From Acidobacteriaceae bacterium (GTDB taxonomy: Bacteria; Acidobacteriota; Terriglobia; Terriglobales; Acidobacteriaceae), in assembly GCA_003165095.1 (NCBI GenBank), contig PLSH01000282.1, positions 778-7,841 on the forward strand: a stretch of 7,064 nt of DNA. The letters run 5' to 3'. Positions 41 through 7,064 of the stretch are shown piece by piece (positions within the stretch are counted from its first letter, which is position 1; every line of letters starts with the position of its first letter). A program made the position numbers and the translations under genes. The notes beneath the pieces were generated by a model. The model saw only the letters and a program-made list of their open reading frames with translations. It made no database searches and had not been told where the DNA came from.

Positions 41-1300
41 TCATCCAAGCAGAGAAAAAACCACTTCTACCGTTGTCTCTGCATCAACCGGCTGGTTGTC
101 CAGTTTATAGGGCTTGTAGCGCCATGTCCGAACGGCGTCGACAGCAGACTGCCGCAACATGGGAGGGCCGCTCACAACCTGCACGTCCTTGATAATTCCC
201 GTGGCAGAAATGGTAGCTTTGAGCAATACTCTGCCTTCGACGCGAGCCGATTTGGCGATAGGCGGATAAATAGGCTGAGTCCTCTGAACAAGCAGACCCA
301 CCGCAACGCCCTCTGAGATGGTCACGACTTTGGGAGCCACTCCTCTTACTTTGGCTCCCTGCCCGCTGAAGACGCTGCCGATCGGGCTGTTGGAGCTCAC
401 ACCTTCCATTCCGGCCGCGCTAATGCGTGTTGTGGGTGGCGCTTCCTCGGCGGCCCTGGGGTCGATAGCATGGGAGATTCGCGCTGGTGTAGCCAGCTGG
501 TCGCTCATCATCTGCGACTGCACCTGGGGTGCGTCCGCAACCTGATCGACCGCAGTATGCGCTGCCGGATCCGAGTTGGACGCCGCCGGCTGTCTAGCTG
601 GAGACGGCTTTGCGGAAGACGCAGCCTGAAGAGCACTCACGTTTGTCGCTGCCGGCGCCTGCGTTCCGGTTGCCACAGCCTGACGTACGACCGGCTGCTT
701 CACCGTGGAGGGTCTGGCCCGGAAGAACACGAGCGACAGGACGAGCAGAACCAGAACCACGCCGCCGGAAATGGCTGCCGCCATGGTCCAGTTTTTGCGG
801 GGGCGAATTCCCTCTTCCACATTAAGGCTTTTGGAATGAAACGACTGGAAGAGGAATTGATCGTCCTCGGTCAGCGCGCCTGCCTGGGGCGAGGCTGTGG
901 AATGTGACTCGCCCGCCGCAGCGCCGTTCGATCCGCGGGGCTGCTGAGCTCCTTCGTTGATGACACGGACAGGCGCCGGTTTAGGCGAAGCGGTGCCGGG
1001 CAACTTGTCCACCACATCGTTAATGGACCTTAGCCGTCGGAAAAAGGCTTCTTCCTCTTCGTCGAACTTGGCTGGCGCGGATGAATGGACGATACGCAGC
1101 ACATTCGCCAAAGGCTCTTCGGCAGCATGCGGTCCTGCGAGCTGCGCAGCCGTCACGGGAGCAACGTCGGGTCCAGGGACGGTTGCGGGGCCGTCAGAAT
1201 TGACGGAATGAGGCGCCGAAGAAGCTCCGCCATCCCATTCGGCGAAATCCTCAGGAAGCGTATCGGGTAATCCGTGCCTTATTTCCGCTGGAGATGCCAT
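41..1300 (-). CDS. TonB-family protein with long cytoplasmic N-terminus
   Basis: This 419-residue protein has the TonB C-terminal domain at about residues 335-419. Visible hallmarks are the QPIYPPIAK stretch, the VEGRVLLKATIS strand, the VVSGPPMLRQSAVDAVRTW helix region and the WRYKPY motif, ending in VEVVFSLLG. One membrane segment lies at about residues 171-193 after basic residues (RPRKN), and a Pro/Ala/Ser/Gln-rich periplasmic linker follows. In the family this domain contacts outer-membrane receptors or other periplasmic partners. Two features are unusual. About 170 residues precede the membrane segment, where E. coli TonB has about a dozen. The segment also has no histidine, whereas classical TonB has a conserved SHLS-type face that couples to ExbB/ExbD. 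The N-terminal part carries an aromatic-acidic peptide (LPEDFAEWD, residues 15-23) and an acidic patch (DEEEEAFF, residues 80-87). The start is an ATG whose Shine-Dalgarno GGGAG (1311-1315, 10 bases upstream) lies inside the preceding gene. The frames overlap by 22 bases, which suggests translational coupling. No exbB/exbD is seen. The domain call is firm; the role as an energy transducer is not. Confidence 0.88.
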   Translation of the reverse strand: MASPAEIRHGLPDTLPEDFAEWDGGASSAPHSVNSDGPATVPGPDVAPVTAAQLAGPHAAEEPLANVLRIVHSSAPAKFDEEEEAFFRRLRSINDVVDKLPGTASPKPAPVRVINEGAQQPRGSNGAAAGESHSTASPQAGALTEDDQFLFQSFHSKSLNVEEGIRPRKNWTMAAAISGGVVLVLLVLSLVFFRARPSTVKQPVVRQAVATGTQAPAATNVSALQAASSAKPSPARQPAASNSDPAAHTAVDQVADAPQVQSQMMSDQLATPARISHAIDPRAAEEAPPTTRISAAGMEGVSSNSPIGSVFSGQGAKVRGVAPKVVTISEGVAVGLLVQRTQPIYPPIAKSARVEGRVLLKATISATGIIKDVQVVSGPPMLRQSAVDAVRTWRYKPYKLDNQPVDAETTVEVVFSLLG

Positions 1301-4173
1301 TGGCCATCTTCTCCCTTCTCATAAACAGCGCCTTTGTAAGTGCGTGTCTCACGCTGACCTTCCTGGGTGGAGCTGCTTCCGCTGGTTGCCACGTCTCGCT
1401 CGCCTTCCCAAAGGTCGGTCGCGTTTGCGATGCCTGTTTGCGGGAACGGTATCTGCGTGGACGCCGTGAGCAGCGATGCGATATTCGCCAATCCTTCAAC
1501 GACGAGCGCCACGGTTGCCTGCGCAGGCGCGTACTTCTCAATGTCCTCGGGAGTTAAGGTCACGGTGAGAGTGTGAGTTCCCGGCGCCAGCACGTCACCC
1601 GCGGCGGGGCTGTAAACAAACGTTCCCGGTACCGATGCCGTGGCATTGAGCTGGGCGGCGCCGAGGGCAACACCGTAGCGAATGGCGGAGGGATGAGGCC
1701 AGGTGATCCTGGTTGGCGCTGTCTCAGTGACGGCCAGAGATACGGCCGATTGCGCTGCCCTGTAATTGGTAGTGTCCTTTGGAGTGAAGGCAACGGAAAG
1801 GGTATGCGCACCTGCTCCAAGCACATCACCCCCTGCGGGACTGTAGACGAACGTTCCGGGAACCGAGGCCGTGGCGTTGAGTTGTATAGCGTTGAGCGGA
1901 GCGCCGCAGTGGATCGGGTCGGGGGACGGCCATGTGATTACCGGCATTGCCTTGGCGACAATGAGCGATACGGCGGCCTGCACCGAGGTGTAGCTCGAGC
2001 GATCTGCCGGGGTGAAAATGACCGAGGGCGTATGCTCTCCAGCCGCCAGAACGGCGCCGGCTCCCGGGATGTATTCGAACGTCCCCGGAACCGAAGCCGT
2101 GGCACTGAGCTGAGCGGAGCTGAGCGGGTTTCCGTAAATGATTGCATCAGGCTGAGGCCAAGCGATGGCCGGAGTCGCCCTGGCGACGGAAACGGATACG
2201 GTGGCCTGGGTCTGGGCGTAGTTCGTGCTGTTTTCCGGAATGAAGATTGCCTGAAGCGTATGCGTTCCCGCCCCCAGCACCTCACCCGCGCCGGGAGCAT
2301 ATTCGAACCTTCCGGGAACCGACGCCGTGGCATTCAGCTGCGCATCGCTGAGCGCGGCGCCATAGGGCATCGGATGGGGAGCAGCCCAAGCGACCGCCGG
2401 TGTGGCCCTGGCGACTTCAATTGATACCGAGGCTTCAGCCGGAGTGTAATCGGCTTCGTTCGCCGGAACGAATATCACATGCAGCATATGCGTTCCGGCA
2501 TCAAGCAATTCACCCGGAGGAGGAGTGTAAGCAAGCGTACCCGGGACCGACGCCTCCGCTTTAAGCTGAGAGGAGCTGAGCGCGACGCCGTAGGAGATGG
2601 CCTCAGGCTCCGGCCAGCCGATGGTTGGCGTCGCCCTGGAGACAACGATCGTGACAGCAGCCTGTACCGGATGTCCCGCAGAGTCATCGGGCGTGAAAGT
2701 GACCCAGAGCGTGTGCGTTCCCGCCGGGAGCATGTAGCCGGCGCTCGGGGTGAAGACAAATGTCCCGGGGACCGATGCCGAGGCATTGAGTTGAGTATCG
2801 CCAAGCGCGGCGCCACAGGTAATCGGGTCGGGCGCTGGCCATGCAATGGCAGGCGTGACCCCGGCCTTTACCGGCTTCGTACCATTGGCAGGCGTTGGAC
2901 TGAGAATGGAAAGCGGTTTTTCGGTTGTGGAAGCTTTCTCTGTATTATTTCTGCCCAGACCGATGAAGTTGAACCCTTTTTTCTTTCCGTGGGGTACGGG
3001 ACGGCCTGTAACGGAGCTAGCCATTTCGAGGATCTGCCTTGAAATGGGGGAATCCGCGAGCGCGAGCGGAGTTGCGGTGTTCTGCATTTGGCGCACAGCG
3101 TCGTAATCGTCAGGAATCTTCCACTGCACCGGCCTGTTGAGAGCCTTGGCAATATGTTCTTCGCCGATCCCCAGCACCTGGGGCTCGAAGCGGTTGATCA
3201 CGATTTCGAGTTTTGGGCCGCCGGCGTGGAAGAACCGCGAGATCAGGCGGCTTGAATTGCGTAGTTCGGAGATGCCGGCCTGGGTGACCAGGTAGATGGT
3301 AGACGCATCTTTGAAGAGAGTGGTGTCCATTAAATCCACTCTCGAGCCAACGTCGACAATCACATAATCGAATTCCAGCCGGGCGACCGCAGCCAGCTTG
3401 TCAATGCTTGCTGTCGTGGACACGACCTCGGGAACCTTGCTGGGAGCCGCAAGCAGGGATACCCCGGACTGATGCTTAGCCACGAGTTTTTGAAGGAAAC
3501 TTCCATCCAGCCGGTCGGCTTCAAGGAGCGCGCTGTCGGTGGAGTAATCCGCTGCGATTCCCAGGTTGAGCGCAGCGTCTCCCATGGGAAGGCCGAGGTC
3601 GATCAAGAGAGTGCTTTGGTCGGAATCCTGCGCCATGGCGATGGCGAAATTGCAGGCAATGGTGGTGACGCCGGAGCCGCCCTTGGCGCCGAAAAACACC
3701 AGCAGTTTCCCCCGCGTCTTCTTGACGGGGTAAGGTCTCGGGCGGAGGATGGCCGCGGCGCGAACCAGAGCCTCCGCGACCGTGTTCTGGTCGTAGGGAG
3801 GAATCAAGTACTCACGGGCGCCTGCGCGCATGCAACGGACCAAGCGCTCCCGATCGGCGACGGCCGAATAGACCATTACGGTTGCTGTGCCTTTGCTGCA
3901 AATGCTCTCCACCAGATCCAGGGCGGCTCCCGGTTCGCTATCCAGGTCGATGATGATGACGTCGAAGTTCTGCTCCAGCAGCCTCGGCACGTCATCCAGC
4001 GAAGTTGGGTAGGAGGAGAATTCGTGGACCTCAGCTTCACGTCCTTCGGCAAGCGCGCGGGCCATCTCCTGGCGCCGCAATTCGTCCGGGCCGATCAACG
4101 CGATCGACAGCTTCTCAACTCCAATGGAGTCGGAATACCTGGTATCGAAATCCGGTGATAAGCCTGAACTCAT
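1279..4173 (-). CDS. CpaE/TadZ-like receiver-ATPase fused to six Ig-like (MBG-type) repeats
   Basis: This 964-residue protein has four parts. (1) Residues about 20-145 form a receiver-like domain with an Asp at the phosphoacceptor position (D76 in IIIDLDS) and S103. Only one acidic residue follows strand 1 (D30), and the usual KP lysine is replaced (YLIPPYD), so it looks like a pseudo-receiver. (2) Residues about 155-390 form a MinD/ParA-type ATPase. Its deviant Walker A is GAKGGSGVTT: the signature lysine K164 is kept and the usual second lysine is V169, as in CpaE/TadZ. LLIDLGLPMGD (D192) and DYVIVDVGS (D274) follow. CpaE/TadZ proteins position the Tad pilus machine at the pole. (3) Residues 441-893 are six tandem beta-rich repeats. 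(4) Residues 894-964 are a polar tail ending YKGAVYEKGEDGQWHLQRK. No signal peptide or membrane helix is visible, so the whole chain should be cytoplasmic. CpaE proteins usually end near the ATPase domain, so more than half of this chain is additional. The ATG at 4171-4173 is preceded by GGAAGG (4185-4190), 11 bases away. It lies upstream of the TonB-family gene and overlaps it by 22 bases. No other tad/cpa genes are present, so a role in pilus assembly is uncertain. Confidence 0.87.
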   Translation of the reverse strand: MSSGLSPDFDTRYSDSIGVEKLSIALIGPDELRRQEMARALAEGREAEVHEFSSYPTSLDDVPRLLEQNFDVIIIDLDSEPGAALDLVESICSKGTATVMVYSAVADRERLVRCMRAGAREYLIPPYDQNTVAEALVRAAAILRPRPYPVKKTRGKLLVFFGAKGGSGVTTIACNFAIAMAQDSDQSTLLIDLGLPMGDAALNLGIAADYSTDSALLEADRLDGSFLQKLVAKHQSGVSLLAAPSKVPEVVSTTASIDKLAAVARLEFDYVIVDVGSRVDLMDTTLFKDASTIYLVTQAGISELRNSSRLISRFFHAGGPKLEIVINRFEPQVLGIGEEHIAKALNRPVQWKIPDDYDAVRQMQNTATPLALADSPISRQILEMASSVTGRPVPHGKKKGFNFIGLGRNNTEKASTTEKPLSILSPTPANGTKPVKAGVTPAIAWPAPDPITCGAALGDTQLNASASVPGTFVFTPSAGYMLPAGTHTLWVTFTPDDSAGHPVQAAVTIVVSRATPTIGWPEPEAISYGVALSSSQLKAEASVPGTLAYTPPPGELLDAGTHMLHVIFVPANEADYTPAEASVSIEVARATPAVAWAAPHPMPYGAALSDAQLNATASVPGRFEYAPGAGEVLGAGTHTLQAIFIPENSTNYAQTQATVSVSVARATPAIAWPQPDAIIYGNPLSSAQLSATASVPGTFEYIPGAGAVLAAGEHTPSVIFTPADRSSYTSVQAAVSLIVAKAMPVITWPSPDPIHCGAPLNAIQLNATASVPGTFVYSPAGGDVLGAGAHTLSVAFTPKDTTNYRAAQSAVSLAVTETAPTRITWPHPSAIRYGVALGAAQLNATASVPGTFVYSPAAGDVLAPGTHTLTVTLTPEDIEKYAPAQATVALVVEGLANIASLLTASTQIPFPQTGIANATDLWEGERDVATSGSSSTQEGQRETRTYKGAVYEKGEDGQWHLQRK
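1495..2853 (-). repeat. Six tandem Ig-like coding repeats, period about 228 bp
   Basis: The array covers residues 441-893 of the CpaE-like protein. Units, in order of translation, are 2853-2629, 2628-2401, 2400-2173, 2172-1945, 1944-1714 and 1713-1495. The conserved SVPG motif recurs with DNA spacings of 225, 228, 228, 228 and 231 bases. The consensus is roughly ATPxIxWPxPxxIxYG, then LxxxQLNATASVPGTF, YxPxxGxVLxAGTHTL, FTPxDxxxY and a closing hydrophobic strand. This matches the MBG/Ig-like repeats common in large exported proteins of Acidobacteriota. The units are similar but diverged, with no identical copies. Units 1 and 5 share PDPIxCGA, with Cys replacing the Tyr found in the others (C453 and C756). 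The repeat pattern is plain in the sequence; the family name is from recognition. Confidence 0.93.
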
Positions 4174-4651: not shown

Positions 4652-5707
4652 CTAATTGCGGGTTTGAGACAGCAGGGTTTCGATCCCGGCCTTTTCCTCG
4701 GCAGTGAGCGCGAGGAGCGGAGAACGTACGCGGCCACCGTAGTAGCCGTTGAAGTCGCAGGCGTACTTGACGCCGGCTATTCCGAGGACGCCGACGATGC
4801 GCTGGTTCGCTTCCGCAATGCGCTGCTGTTTCTCGCCGGCAAGCTCCAGATCGTGATCTTTCCAGGCTAAGTAGATCTCCTGGCAGGCCTGCGGAGCGCA
4901 AGCGGCGAAGGCCAGAATAGCCCCGGATGCGCCGGCCTGCAGGGATTCAAATACGGACGAACCAGAACCGCAAAGCACCTGGAAGCCGACTTCCCTGCTC
5001 CGCGTCTTGAGTGGGGCGGCGGGAGGTGCTGTGGCCAAAGCGATACCGCTTGCCAGACCGCTTGCAGAGACAAATGTTCCGGCCGATTCGGCTGCCGGGG
5101 ACAACATGCGTGCGGTGACCGCCTCAAAGATTGGAGTCACTGTAACGGTGCGGCGAAGCGCGGTTCCAGTGGCGGCTACTGAGGCCCGAATCCGATCGAC
5201 GCTGCCGCTCGAATCCTTGATTCCGATGATATTGGGGTGGTTGGCCAGCTCGGCGATGAGCTCAATGGGGATCTGATAAGGAACGCACTTGGGGATGTTA
5301 TAGAGCAGAACCGGCAGAGGCGAATGGTCGGCGACGCTGCGGAAATAATTCAGCACCGCGGGCGAGGACAATTGGCCGGCGTAATAGCTGGGAGGGCGAA
5401 CGAGGATGGCGTCGTAGTGGAATTCTGCGGCAGCTTCGGCCAGGACGAACGTTGCGCCAACACTCTCGCGGCCCACGCCGGCGATGAGGACTTTTTCCGG
5501 CGCAGTGGCTTCCGCAGCTACCCGCAAGACTTCGCGAGACTCGGCATCGTCGAGCATAACCGCTTCGCCCGTTGAGCCCAGTACGACCATTCCGGCAAGC
5601 AGGCTGCGGGAGTAGCGAGCCATGTTGGCCTCAAGCTTGCGGAAGTAGATCCGCTCGTCGGAATAAAACGGGGTGGTTACCGCGGCAAAGACGCCTTCTA
5701 TCAGCAT
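4652..5707 (-). CDS. DHDPS/DapA-superfamily aldolase, 4-hydroxy-2-oxoglutarate aldolase-like
   Basis: This 351-residue protein is a class I (Schiff-base) TIM-barrel aldolase of the DHDPS/N-acetylneuraminate lyase superfamily. Visible motifs are VTTPF (10-14), the carboxylate-binding loop GSTGE (44-48), a tyrosine pair after RPPS (108-109), catalytic Tyr136 in YNIPK and Schiff-base Lys164 in GIKDSSG. The stretches SPLPVLLYNIP, HPNIIGIKDSSG, GFQVLCGS and GYYGGRVRSPL resemble animal HOGA1, which splits 4-hydroxy-2-oxoglutarate into pyruvate and glyoxylate. This is from memory of the family, so the substrate remains uncertain and a dihydrodipicolinate synthase role is possible. Typical members have about 290-310 residues. 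Here an in-frame insertion at about residues 181-237 separates KDSSG from FQVL. The ATG start is supported by the N-terminus MLIEGVFAAVTTPF, which fits the family, but no clear Shine-Dalgarno is visible. It lies 107 bases after carB on the same strand and could be cotranscribed with it. Confidence 0.87.
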   Translation of the reverse strand: MLIEGVFAAVTTPFYSDERIYFRKLEANMARYSRSLLAGMVVLGSTGEAVMLDDAESREVLRVAAEATAPEKVLIAGVGRESVGATFVLAEAAAEFHYDAILVRPPSYYAGQLSSPAVLNYFRSVADHSPLPVLLYNIPKCVPYQIPIELIAELANHPNIIGIKDSSGSVDRIRASVAATGTALRRTVTVTPIFEAVTARMLSPAAESAGTFVSASGLASGIALATAPPAAPLKTRSREVGFQVLCGSGSSVFESLQAGASGAILAFAACAPQACQEIYLAWKDHDLELAGEKQQRIAEANQRIVGVLGIAGVKYACDFNGYYGGRVRSPLLALTAEEKAGIETLLSQTRN

Positions 5708-5815: not shown

Positions 5816-7064
5816 CTACGATTTGGCTCCGCCGTTCGCCGCATGCAGGTGCTGAAGGGCGAAAACGGTGGTGTGATGCAGCTGCATGGCGGCGATGCCG
5901 TCGGCGGCGGCCTGGGCGGCGGCGATGGTGGTGATGGTGGGAATGCGGGCGAGGACGGCGGCGCGGCGGATGGCTTTCTCGTCGAAGAATGTGTCCTGGC
6001 CGCGGGGCGTGTTCACGATGAGCTGGATCCGGTCGCCCTTGATGAGGTCGACGACGTTGGGCCGGCCTTCCTTGACTTTAAAAACACGTTCGACGATCAG
6101 GCCGGCGGCTTCGAGCACCTTGGCCGTACCCTCGGTGGCCACGATCTTGAAGCCGAGGTGTACGTAGCGGCGGGCGAGGTCAACCACCGCTTCTTTGTCG
6201 TGGTCGTTGACGGTGAAGAAGACTGTACCCTTGGTTGGAAGAATCTGGCCGGCGGAAAGTTGCGCCTTGGCAAAAGCTTCGCCGAAGGTGGACGCAACGC
6301 CCATGACTTCGCCGGTGGATTTCATCTCCGGGCCGAGGACCGTATCGACGCCGGCGAATTTCGACCACGGGAAGACTGGAGATTTGACGTAGTAATGCGT
6401 GCCGGTATCGAGGTCTTTGCCGGAGGCCAACTGCGCCGGGAGCAGTTCGCGGAGCTTGCGCCCGGTCATGAGCCGCGCGGCCACTTTGGCCAAGGGAATT
6501 CCGGTTGCCTTGGAGACGTACGGGACGGTTCTCGAGGCGCGGGGGTTGACTTCGATCACGTATACGCGGTCGGCGCCCTCGGCATCGCGCTGGATGGCGA
6601 ACTGGAGGTTGACGAGGCCGACGACCTTGAGGGCCAGGGCTAGCTTGCGAGTGTAAATGCGCAGGGTTTCGAGGGTCTGATCGGAGATGCCGACGGCGGG
6701 GAGAACGCAGGAGGAGTCGCCGGAGTGGATGCCGGCCTCCTCGATGTGCTGCATGATGCCCGCGATAAGCACGTCTTCAGAGTCGCAGAGCGCGTCTACG
6801 TCGACCTCGATGGCGTTTTCGAGGAAGTGATCGATGAGGACGGGGCGTTCCTGGGAGTATTCGACGGCTGCCTTCATATAGCGGTCGACTGCTTCCGCGT
6901 CGTAGGCGATGACCATGGCGCGTCCGCCGAGAACATAGCTGGGCCTGACGAGAACCGGGTAGCCGATGCGCTCGCCGACGGCGAGAGCCTCCTGAACGCT
7001 GGTTGCGGCGCCGCCAGGGGGTTGAGGAATGTCGAGCTCTTCAAGCAGCTTGCCGAAGCGCTTG
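5816..7064 (-). CDS. carB: Carbamoyl-phosphate synthase large subunit, C-terminal part (5' end off window)
   Basis: About 415 residues are present and the frame stays open to the right edge, so the start and roughly the first 660 residues are outside. CarB makes carbamoyl phosphate from glutamine-derived ammonia, bicarbonate and two ATP, for pyrimidine and arginine synthesis, with the small subunit CarA. The visible part begins within the second synthetase half. Its ATP-grasp motifs include [12 protein letters not shown] (about 6914-6949), [36 protein letters not shown] (about 6500-6556, with the metal-binding E and N) and [13 protein letters not shown] (about 6299-6337). The C-terminal MGS-like allosteric domain follows (about 5882-6241; [20 protein letters not shown] through NTPRG). 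Its length and end match full-length bacterial CarB, and no break is seen. The visible ATG at 6914-6916 is internal, not the start, because conserved sequence continues upstream of it. The stop is TAG. Confidence 0.97.

What the first reader, a model, noticed from the sequence alone, without database searches (positions are those of the whole stretch)
1279..4173. Cytoplasmic CpaE/TadZ-type ATPase fused to six Ig-like repeats normally seen in exported proteins
One uninterrupted frame joins a pseudo-receiver, a MinD-like ATPase with a CpaE-type Walker A, six MBG-like repeats and a polar tail. No signal peptide or membrane segment is visible. From family knowledge, CpaE ends near its ATPase domain and MBG/Ig repeats belong to surface or secreted proteins. 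A repeat rod on a positioning ATPase suggests an intracellular scaffold or spacer, possibly at the pole or inner membrane. This would be a new use for these repeats.
Basis: partly seen in the sequence, partly recalled or inferred. Interest (0 to 1): 0.8.

Follow-up and report, generated by a model that had tools for sequence, protein, structure and literature searches.

The report
CpaE ATPase with cytoplasmic Ig rod
In some soil Acidobacteria, a pilus-positioning ATPase carries a rod of immunoglobulin-like repeats that sits inside the cell and probably hooks onto a TonB-like membrane protein encoded right behind it, so a building block known from the outside of bacteria seems to serve as an internal spacer or tether.

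Summary
Minus-strand frame 4173..1279 (964 aa) is one gene: CpaE/TadZ-type pseudo-receiver, MinD-like ATPase, six ~76-aa Ig-like repeats, tail. It is no assembly join: over a hundred relatives share the architecture. The name MBG is not confirmed by Pfam. Three things were missed. (1) The last 23 residues are a conserved tag. (2) The next gene, overlapping by 22 bp in 17 of 17 rows, encodes a TonB_C protein with a long cytoplasmic N-terminus and one membrane helix. (3) Of 123 repeat-bearing CpaE proteins, 113 carry the tag and no helix after the repeats; 9 of the other 10 have a membrane helix there, three running on into TonB_C. The repeats thus lie on the cytoplasmic side; their cysteines agree. 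In four genomes the rod-bearing CpaE belongs to a Tad pilus operon, three with this TonB gene, one with a remnant. Best explanation (0.55): a CpaE paralogue whose rod docks through the tag on a TonB-like strut, tethering or spacing a Tad-type machine. Docking and function are inferred. The window subfamily's ATPase looks hydrolysis-deficient.

The parts
1279..4173 (-). CpaE-type ATPase with Ig-like rod, 964 aa, whole gene
3754..4116 (-). pseudo-receiver (residues ~20-140)
   Evidence: Asp76 and Asp78 invariant in 26 of 26 rows, no Lys at 124-126
3001..3714 (-). MinD/ParA-like ATPase (residues 154-391); deviant Walker A 164-171; Gly194 where MinD has its second Asp
2950..2985 (-). basic-aromatic motif KKKGFNFIGLGR (397-408), equivalent to the C-terminal end of plain CpaE; presumed membrane hook, here internal
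   Evidence: loose motif pattern in 52 of 57 plain CpaE C-termini (16 residues looked at) and 103 of 112 REP_tag proteins (40 residues looked at); no chance control run; membrane role inferred from Caulobacter CpaE (PMC13170226 passages)
1510..2859 (-). six Ig-like repeats (439-888)
1282..1350 (-). C-terminal tag (942-964), predicted three-stranded mini-sheet
   Evidence: 12 invariant positions over the 26 rows of A1; after the repeats in 113 of 120 unfused proteins; strands 943-946, 949-953, 959-963 with pLDDT blocks 58-76
1279..1300 (-). 22-bp overlap of the CpaE stop with the TonB start
   Evidence: 22 bp in 17 of 17 rows holding both motifs
41..1300 (-). TonB_C-domain protein, 419 aa: ~174 aa before one membrane helix, then a linker and TonB_C
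1232..1270 (-). N-terminal motif LPDTLPEDFAEWD of the TonB-like protein
   Evidence: DFxxWD-type motif in the first 40 residues of 108 of 110 full-length homologues (120 listed)
722..778 (-). membrane helix of the TonB-like protein (residues 175-193)
   Evidence: hydropathy 2.7
50..277 (-). TonB_C domain (residues 342-417)
   Evidence: PF03544, 66.9 bits

Best explanation
The gene is a duplicated Tad-type CpaE. A cytoplasmic Ig-like rod has been added behind CpaE's C-terminal membrane hook, and the rod ends in a small docking tag. The tag most likely binds the cytoplasmic N-terminus of the TonB_C protein made from the overlapping next gene, which crosses the inner membrane and reaches into the periplasm. 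Together they form a strut: CpaE dimer - Ig rod - tag:TonB - periplasm/outer envelope. Because the basic-aromatic hook (start of the rod) and the tag (end of the rod) would both be at the membrane, the rod may lie along the inner face as a spacer, with 6, 8 or 13 repeats in the main classes. In some genomes this replaces the CpaE of the Tad pilus operon; the window's copy is a separate paralogue whose ATPase probably binds ATP without efficient hydrolysis and acts as a dimer clamp. Shown from sequence: architecture, overlap, tag-or-membrane-helix alternative, order of parts in single-chain forms, Tad-operon forms. Inferred: tag binding to TonB, rod along the membrane, loss of hydrolysis, positioning of a pilus or secretion machine.
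For: Order CpaE-repeats-membrane helix-TonB_C in one chain in P0070, P0281 and P0356. Of 123 repeat-bearing CpaE proteins, 113 carry the tag after the repeats and none of those has a membrane helix there (maximum hydropathy 1.43); 9 of the 10 without the tag have a hydrophobic segment there (P0033 1.85, the others 2.53-3.17) and one (P0109) has neither, its tail looking frameshifted. Tag and TonB_C gene adjacent at 34 of 40 tag contigs in 80 genomes (hand collation); overlap exactly 22 bp in 17 of 17 rows holding both motifs, L046 repeating L003. Tad operon order peptidase A24 - CpaE+rod - TonB - CpaF in L005, L142 and L150. Cys in repeats 3.7 per 1000 residues in CpaE fusions (90 of 121 proteins with at least one) against 0.35 (4 of 44) in repeat proteins with a hydrophobic N-terminus. 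Hook motif at the fusion point. In the tree 52 of the 56 rod-bearing rows share a branch (support 85) with 8 plain Tad CpaE; four 13-repeat rows fall outside. Presumed catalytic Asp replaced by Gly/Ala in 23 of 24 six/seven-repeat proteins but kept in 81 of 87 longer tagged ones.
Against: No interaction test of tag and TonB was possible. The DFxxWD motif is kept in L051 (DFTEWD), from genome G009, which has no tag match, and in L120, a repeats-TonB fusion with no tag of its own, so the motif may bind something else. Five of 40 tag contigs lack a TonB gene: three Lys-rich-tail chimaeras, one unrelated 311-aa protein (L140), and L145, where a TonB start is present but stops early; a sixth is cut by a contig end. 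Net charge around the TonB helix gives no clear topology (N-side above C-side in 56, below in 42 of 108). There are no Tad genes in the window itself. The Cys contrast is weak in the eight-plus-repeat class (1.6 per 1000), does not correct for kinship, and two proteins without a Walker A match (P0274, P0280) hold 103 of the 178 Cys of that set of 116 for unknown reasons.
Confidence: 0.55

Rival explanations
1. The pair energises outer-membrane transport: the TonB-like protein serves TonB-dependent receptors and the CpaE-rod part is a regulator or anchor that places the transducer.
For: TonB_C domain well above cut-off and a hydrophobic helix in all 108 motif-bearing homologues of the list.
Against: The SxxxH pattern I recall for TonB's membrane helix is present in 0 of 108. 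The few neighbour genes scanned (window 4 genes, and some of L001, L003, L004, L005) included no exbB/exbD, but no genome-wide search was made. In L005, L142 and L150 the pair sits in a Tad operon.
Confidence: 0.17
2. The repeats are a passive, fast-evolving spacer in the cytoplasm with no partner; the tag is a stability or folding cap, and the TonB gene is merely co-translated.
For: Repeat number varies from 6 to 20; the tag also occurs before the repeats in 89 of 120.
Against: The tag is replaced by a membrane helix in 9 of 10 untagged proteins; three fused CpaE-rod-TonB chains exist.
Confidence: 0.2
3. Exported repeats: the ATPase half is cytoplasmic but the repeats are outside.
For: Foldseek's first solved structures for a repeat pair are mostly surface, cell-wall or extracellular proteins such as InlK, SraP, LdtMt2 and S-layer (none below E 1e-3). 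Related repeats occur in proteins with hydrophobic N-termini.
Against: No membrane helix between ATPase and repeats; in single-chain relatives the membrane helix follows the repeats; Cys-rich repeats. The whole model also hits intracellular axoneme chains (9ijj, 7n6g), so the fold does not decide.
Confidence: 0.04
4. Assembly or annotation artefact joining a cpaE gene and a repeat gene.
For: None found.
Against: The same continuous frame in 26 rows of A1 and 123 repeat-bearing CpaE proteins, which are 90% clusters.
Confidence: 0.01

Closest known systems
CpaE/TadZ of Tad (Flp) pili
   Same: Atypical receiver plus MinD-like ATPase with deviant Walker A; in L005, L142, L150 and L145 the gene is the CpaE of a Tad operon
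   Different: Carries six or more Ig-like repeats and a tag behind the ATPase; overlaps a TonB_C gene; in the window it is outside any visible Tad operon and has lost the presumed catalytic Asp
GltG (PglI) of Myxococcus gliding, described in PMC3169522 (passages)
   Same: Cytoplasmic signalling domain (FHA there) joined to a membrane helix and TonB_C; L049 and L051 here are receiver-helix-TonB_C chains
   Different: FHA instead of CpaE receiver/ATPase and Ig rod; different lineage; whether an AglR/TolQ-type channel is a partner here was not tested
Ig-like repeat proteins without CpaE, e.g. P0009 and relatives
   Same: Same repeat type; P0009 is 51% identical to the window protein over 47% of it
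   Different: 44 of 116 such proteins have a hydrophobic N-terminus, and 4 of these 44 have any Cys in the repeats; here the rod follows a cytoplasmic ATPase
Eukaryotic cytoplasmic Ig rods such as titin or filamin (recalled, no call)
   Same: Tandem Ig-like domains used as an intracellular spacer
   Different: No homology tested; bacterial, membrane-linked

Membership tests
CpaE/TadZ | N-terminal atypical receiver | tested here: met
   Response_reg 28.4 bits, below cut-off 30.2; structural match to 3fkq over 20-390; 4dn6 'putative pilus assembly protein CpaE' E 0.0026
CpaE/TadZ | MinD/ParA-like ATPase with deviant Walker A | tested here: met
CpaE/TadZ | C-terminal membrane-binding segment right behind the ATPase | tested here: inconclusive
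   motif present, membrane binding not testable
CpaE/TadZ | Encoded with Tad genes (cpaF, tadB, tadC) | tested here: not met
   none in the 7-kb window (no own genome held); met in relatives L005, L142, L150, L145
CpaE/TadZ | Protein ends near the ATPase | tested here: not met
   about 560 further residues
MBG repeats (Pfam) | Match to a Pfam MBG model | tested here: not met
   no such match at E<=1 for the window protein
TonB | TonB_C domain | tested here: met
   66.9 bits, cut-off 24.6
TonB | Short N-terminus and SxxxH in the membrane helix (recalled) | tested here: not met
   ~174 residues before the helix; SxxxH in 0 of 108
TonB | Partner ExbB/ExbD | not tested
   no genome-wide search made

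The most novel reading that the evidence does not exclude
A new kind of envelope-spanning strut: a CpaE-type (pseudo)ATPase uses a cytoplasmic Ig rod as a membrane-parallel ruler and plugs, through a small modular docking domain, into a TonB_C transmembrane protein. It evolved inside the Tad pilus machine and was then duplicated as an independent positioning system. The same tag is reused on small proteins and an unrelated protein as a docking label.
Probability: 0.4. Interest if true: 0.85.

Novelty: new variant of a known kind. Interest (0 to 1): 0.72.

Why it matters
Bacterial Ig-like repeats of this type are thought of as outside-of-cell rods. Here they appear to be used inside, between a positioning ATPase and the inner membrane. 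That gives a testable example of a bacterial cytoplasmic Ig spacer and suggests a physical link from the cytoplasmic CpaE to a periplasmic TonB_C domain, bearing on the question of how CpaE/TadZ positions the Tad machine across the envelope. The tag-or-helix alternative gives a clean genetic test.

Tried and rejected
Artefact or frameshift: rejected. Secreted repeats: rejected on topology. DNA-level repeats over the gene: only one two-copy 25-nt family at 76%, so the six protein repeats have diverged at DNA level. Solved-structure search by sequence with the repeat half: 0 matches at E<=1. Positive-inside analysis of the TonB-like protein was uninformative. Promoter/terminator scan upstream: one hit of each type against a shuffled mean of 0.6 each, the promoter-like one on the other strand. 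In the VIA-align list only 152-391 was really tested, so no absence is claimed for the repeats.

Papers (listings only unless said): 'CpaE'+'Acidobacteria' 4; TadZ/CpaE/Tad pilus, at least two terms, 47 with 20 listed; 'CpaE'+'Ig-like' 0; 'CpaE'+'TonB' 9; TadZ/Walker A/Eubacterium rectale, at least two terms, 562 with 10 listed; 'MBG domain'+'cytoplasmic' 2, irrelevant by listing; GltJ/TonB/MglA 2; 'TadZ'+'immunoglobulin' 26 with 8 listed. Passages read: PMC13170226, PMC3169522, and PMC3174227, whose one CpaE passage lists four CpaE copies in Solibacter against none in the comparison and says nothing on repeats. The TadZ structure paper PMC3272108 is not held.

Rows dropped or misfiled: in the Cys count, proteins with under 3 repeats;'s class split, all but the 93 proteins with an early LSxALxxP motif; in the 'no Walker A' set at least P0308, P0356, P0071 and probably P0014 are CpaE fusions, which works against the contrast. 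The tree took 36 of 109 tagged P proteins. A1 took 21 of the listed proteins plus 4 loci and the window. In one search, three frames of 579-627 aa in tag-negative genomes matched TonB from nearer the N-terminus and were not looked at. L049 was first read on the wrong strand and corrected.

Full report

It is not a one-off. The search found 2437 relatives at E<=1e-3 among the 7993 candidates scored. Where the 120 listed bear a name it is mostly 'Flp pilus assembly CpaE family ATPase', and some are named from Terracidiphilus. In one search, 123 of the 357 proteins held (the window's own among them) had at least three repeats and the CpaE start or Walker A; repeat numbers of the 120 unfused ones run from 6 to 20. 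Distribution is narrow: the last 43 residues match in 28 of 80 genomes of one genus-level group but in 2 of 396 genomes drawn from the phylum, both already in that group. In 150 genomes of the family, 104 with a match, the listed matches are mostly plain CpaE frames of about 390-520 aa and separate long repeat frames; among those listed only G001 and G019 showed the fusion, and further matches were not listed.

The neighbour. The next gene (1300..41) overlaps by 22 bp and encodes a TonB_C protein with a helix at 175-193. Of 120 listed homologues, 110 are full length and 108 of these have a DFxxWD-type motif in the first 40 residues. The overlap is 22 bp in 17 of 17 rows that hold both motifs (the script looks only at such rows); L046 is the same gene as L003. 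By hand collation, 34 of 40 tag contigs have a TonB_C gene adjacent, 5 do not and 1 is cut by a contig end. Among 12 genomes searched with the TonB protein, the nine with a repeat-bearing CpaE (G001-G005, G008, G010, G011, G019) have the pair; G006, G007 and G009 have no repeat-bearing CpaE and no match from the TonB N-terminus.

Where the repeats are. In P0070, P0281 and P0356 one chain runs CpaE - repeats - membrane helix - TonB_C; P0260, P0282, P0295, P0315 and P0332 run CpaE - repeats - membrane helix - short tail; P0033 ends in a weaker hydrophobic region. Of 123 proteins, the 113 with the tag have no helix after the repeats, and 9 of the 10 without the tag do. With a P-loop ATPase at the N-terminus and one helix behind the repeats, the repeats must be cytoplasmic in the single-chain forms, and by homology in the window. 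Cysteine supports this: 297 in 80440 repeat residues of 121 CpaE fusions, against 17 in 48536 for 44 repeat proteins with a hydrophobic N-terminus; all 116 proteins without a Walker A match hold 178 in 134814, of which 103 are in P0274 and P0280 and some in misfiled fusions. By class it is 11.5 per 1000 in the membrane-helix forms, 6.9 in the six/seven-repeat forms and 1.6 in the longer forms (93 proteins). None of this is corrected for kinship.

The tag. Twelve positions between 942 and 962 are invariant over the 26 rows of A1 while the linker before has almost none; nine of them lie upstream of the overlap, so the overlap alone does not explain the conservation. In 89 of 120 relatives a tag also precedes the repeats. 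The three fused TonB chains lack both tag and DFxxWD motif (0 of 3 each), as expected if these two are the joint. Against this, L051 keeps DFTEWD in a genome without a tag match and L120 fuses repeats to a DFHEWD-TonB. Three genomes have a short frame of 94-106 aa that ends in a tag, overlapping the TonB gene (L135, L138, L139).

Origin. Plain CpaE proteins end in a basic-aromatic motif (52 of 57); the tagged rod-bearing ones keep it just before the rod (103 of 112); the pattern is loose and had no chance control. [quoted passage not shown] In the tree 52 of 56 rod-bearing rows share a branch with 8 plain Tad CpaE (support 85); four 13-repeat rows lie outside; the fewest changes between plain and rod-bearing is 4; the window sits with six-repeat and membrane-helix forms at 100 (quick search, long branches noted). 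In L005, L142 and L150 the order is peptidase A24 - CpaE+rod - TonB - CpaF; in L145 TonB is reduced to a start followed by an early stop. Genomes G001, G003, G004, G008, G010 and G011 carry a plain Tad CpaE as well as the rod pair.

The ATPase. The P-loop lysine of MinD is Val in 26 of 26. The second Asp of MinD's 'IDADIG' aligns with Gly194 (4v03); it is Gly/Ala in 23 of 24 six/seven-repeat proteins, Asp in 81 of 87 longer tagged ones and in 1 of 9 membrane-helix forms. That this Asp is catalytic is recalled. So the window's copy probably binds ATP without efficient hydrolysis, while the longer forms, three of which were seen in Tad operons with TonB, may cycle.

Mechanism and verdict. Best supported is a strut: CpaE dimer at the membrane, Ig rod in the cytoplasm, tag docking on the TonB-like protein, TonB_C in the periplasm. 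Architecture, coupling and order of parts are shown from sequence; docking, direction of the rod and function are inferred. The closest kinds are CpaE/TadZ and, for the cytoplasmic-domain-helix-TonB_C plan, GltG of Myxococcus (PMC3169522 passages). In the listings and passages seen there was no description of this combination; no paper was read whole.

Noticed in passing
L143, L144, L149: Three genomes hold a chimaera: CpaE - repeats (six; five whole ones in L149) - second copy of part of the ATPase - tag - Lys/Pro/Ala-rich histone-H1-like tail, with no TonB gene found in the stretch fetched.
   Followed up: partly
L140, minus strand, frame of 311 aa: An unrelated, probably coiled-coil protein carries two copies of a tag-like motif, so the tag may be a reusable docking label.
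   Followed up: no
L135, L138, L139: Short frames of 94-106 aa end in a tag overlapping a DFxxWD TonB_C gene, without ATPase or repeats.
   Followed up: partly
L049 and L051: Receiver - membrane helix - TonB_C in one chain without ATPase or repeats, in genomes G006 and G009, where no rod form was found.
   Followed up: partly
L120:1567-4488: Repeats - DFHEWD - helix - TonB_C in one frame without CpaE, with a different N-terminus.
   Followed up: partly
L145:4500-4700: Tad operon in which the TonB gene behind the rod-bearing CpaE is reduced to a start with an early stop.
   Followed up: partly
P0282 and P0315, C-termini: After the membrane helix both end in a similar helix-like stretch instead of TonB_C.
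   Followed up: no
window 4652-5707, minus strand: DapA-like gene whose Pfam match breaks into two stretches, suggesting an insertion after residue ~181.
   Followed up: no
window 5816-7063, minus strand: C-terminal part of carbamoyl-phosphate synthase large subunit, running off the window.
   Followed up: no
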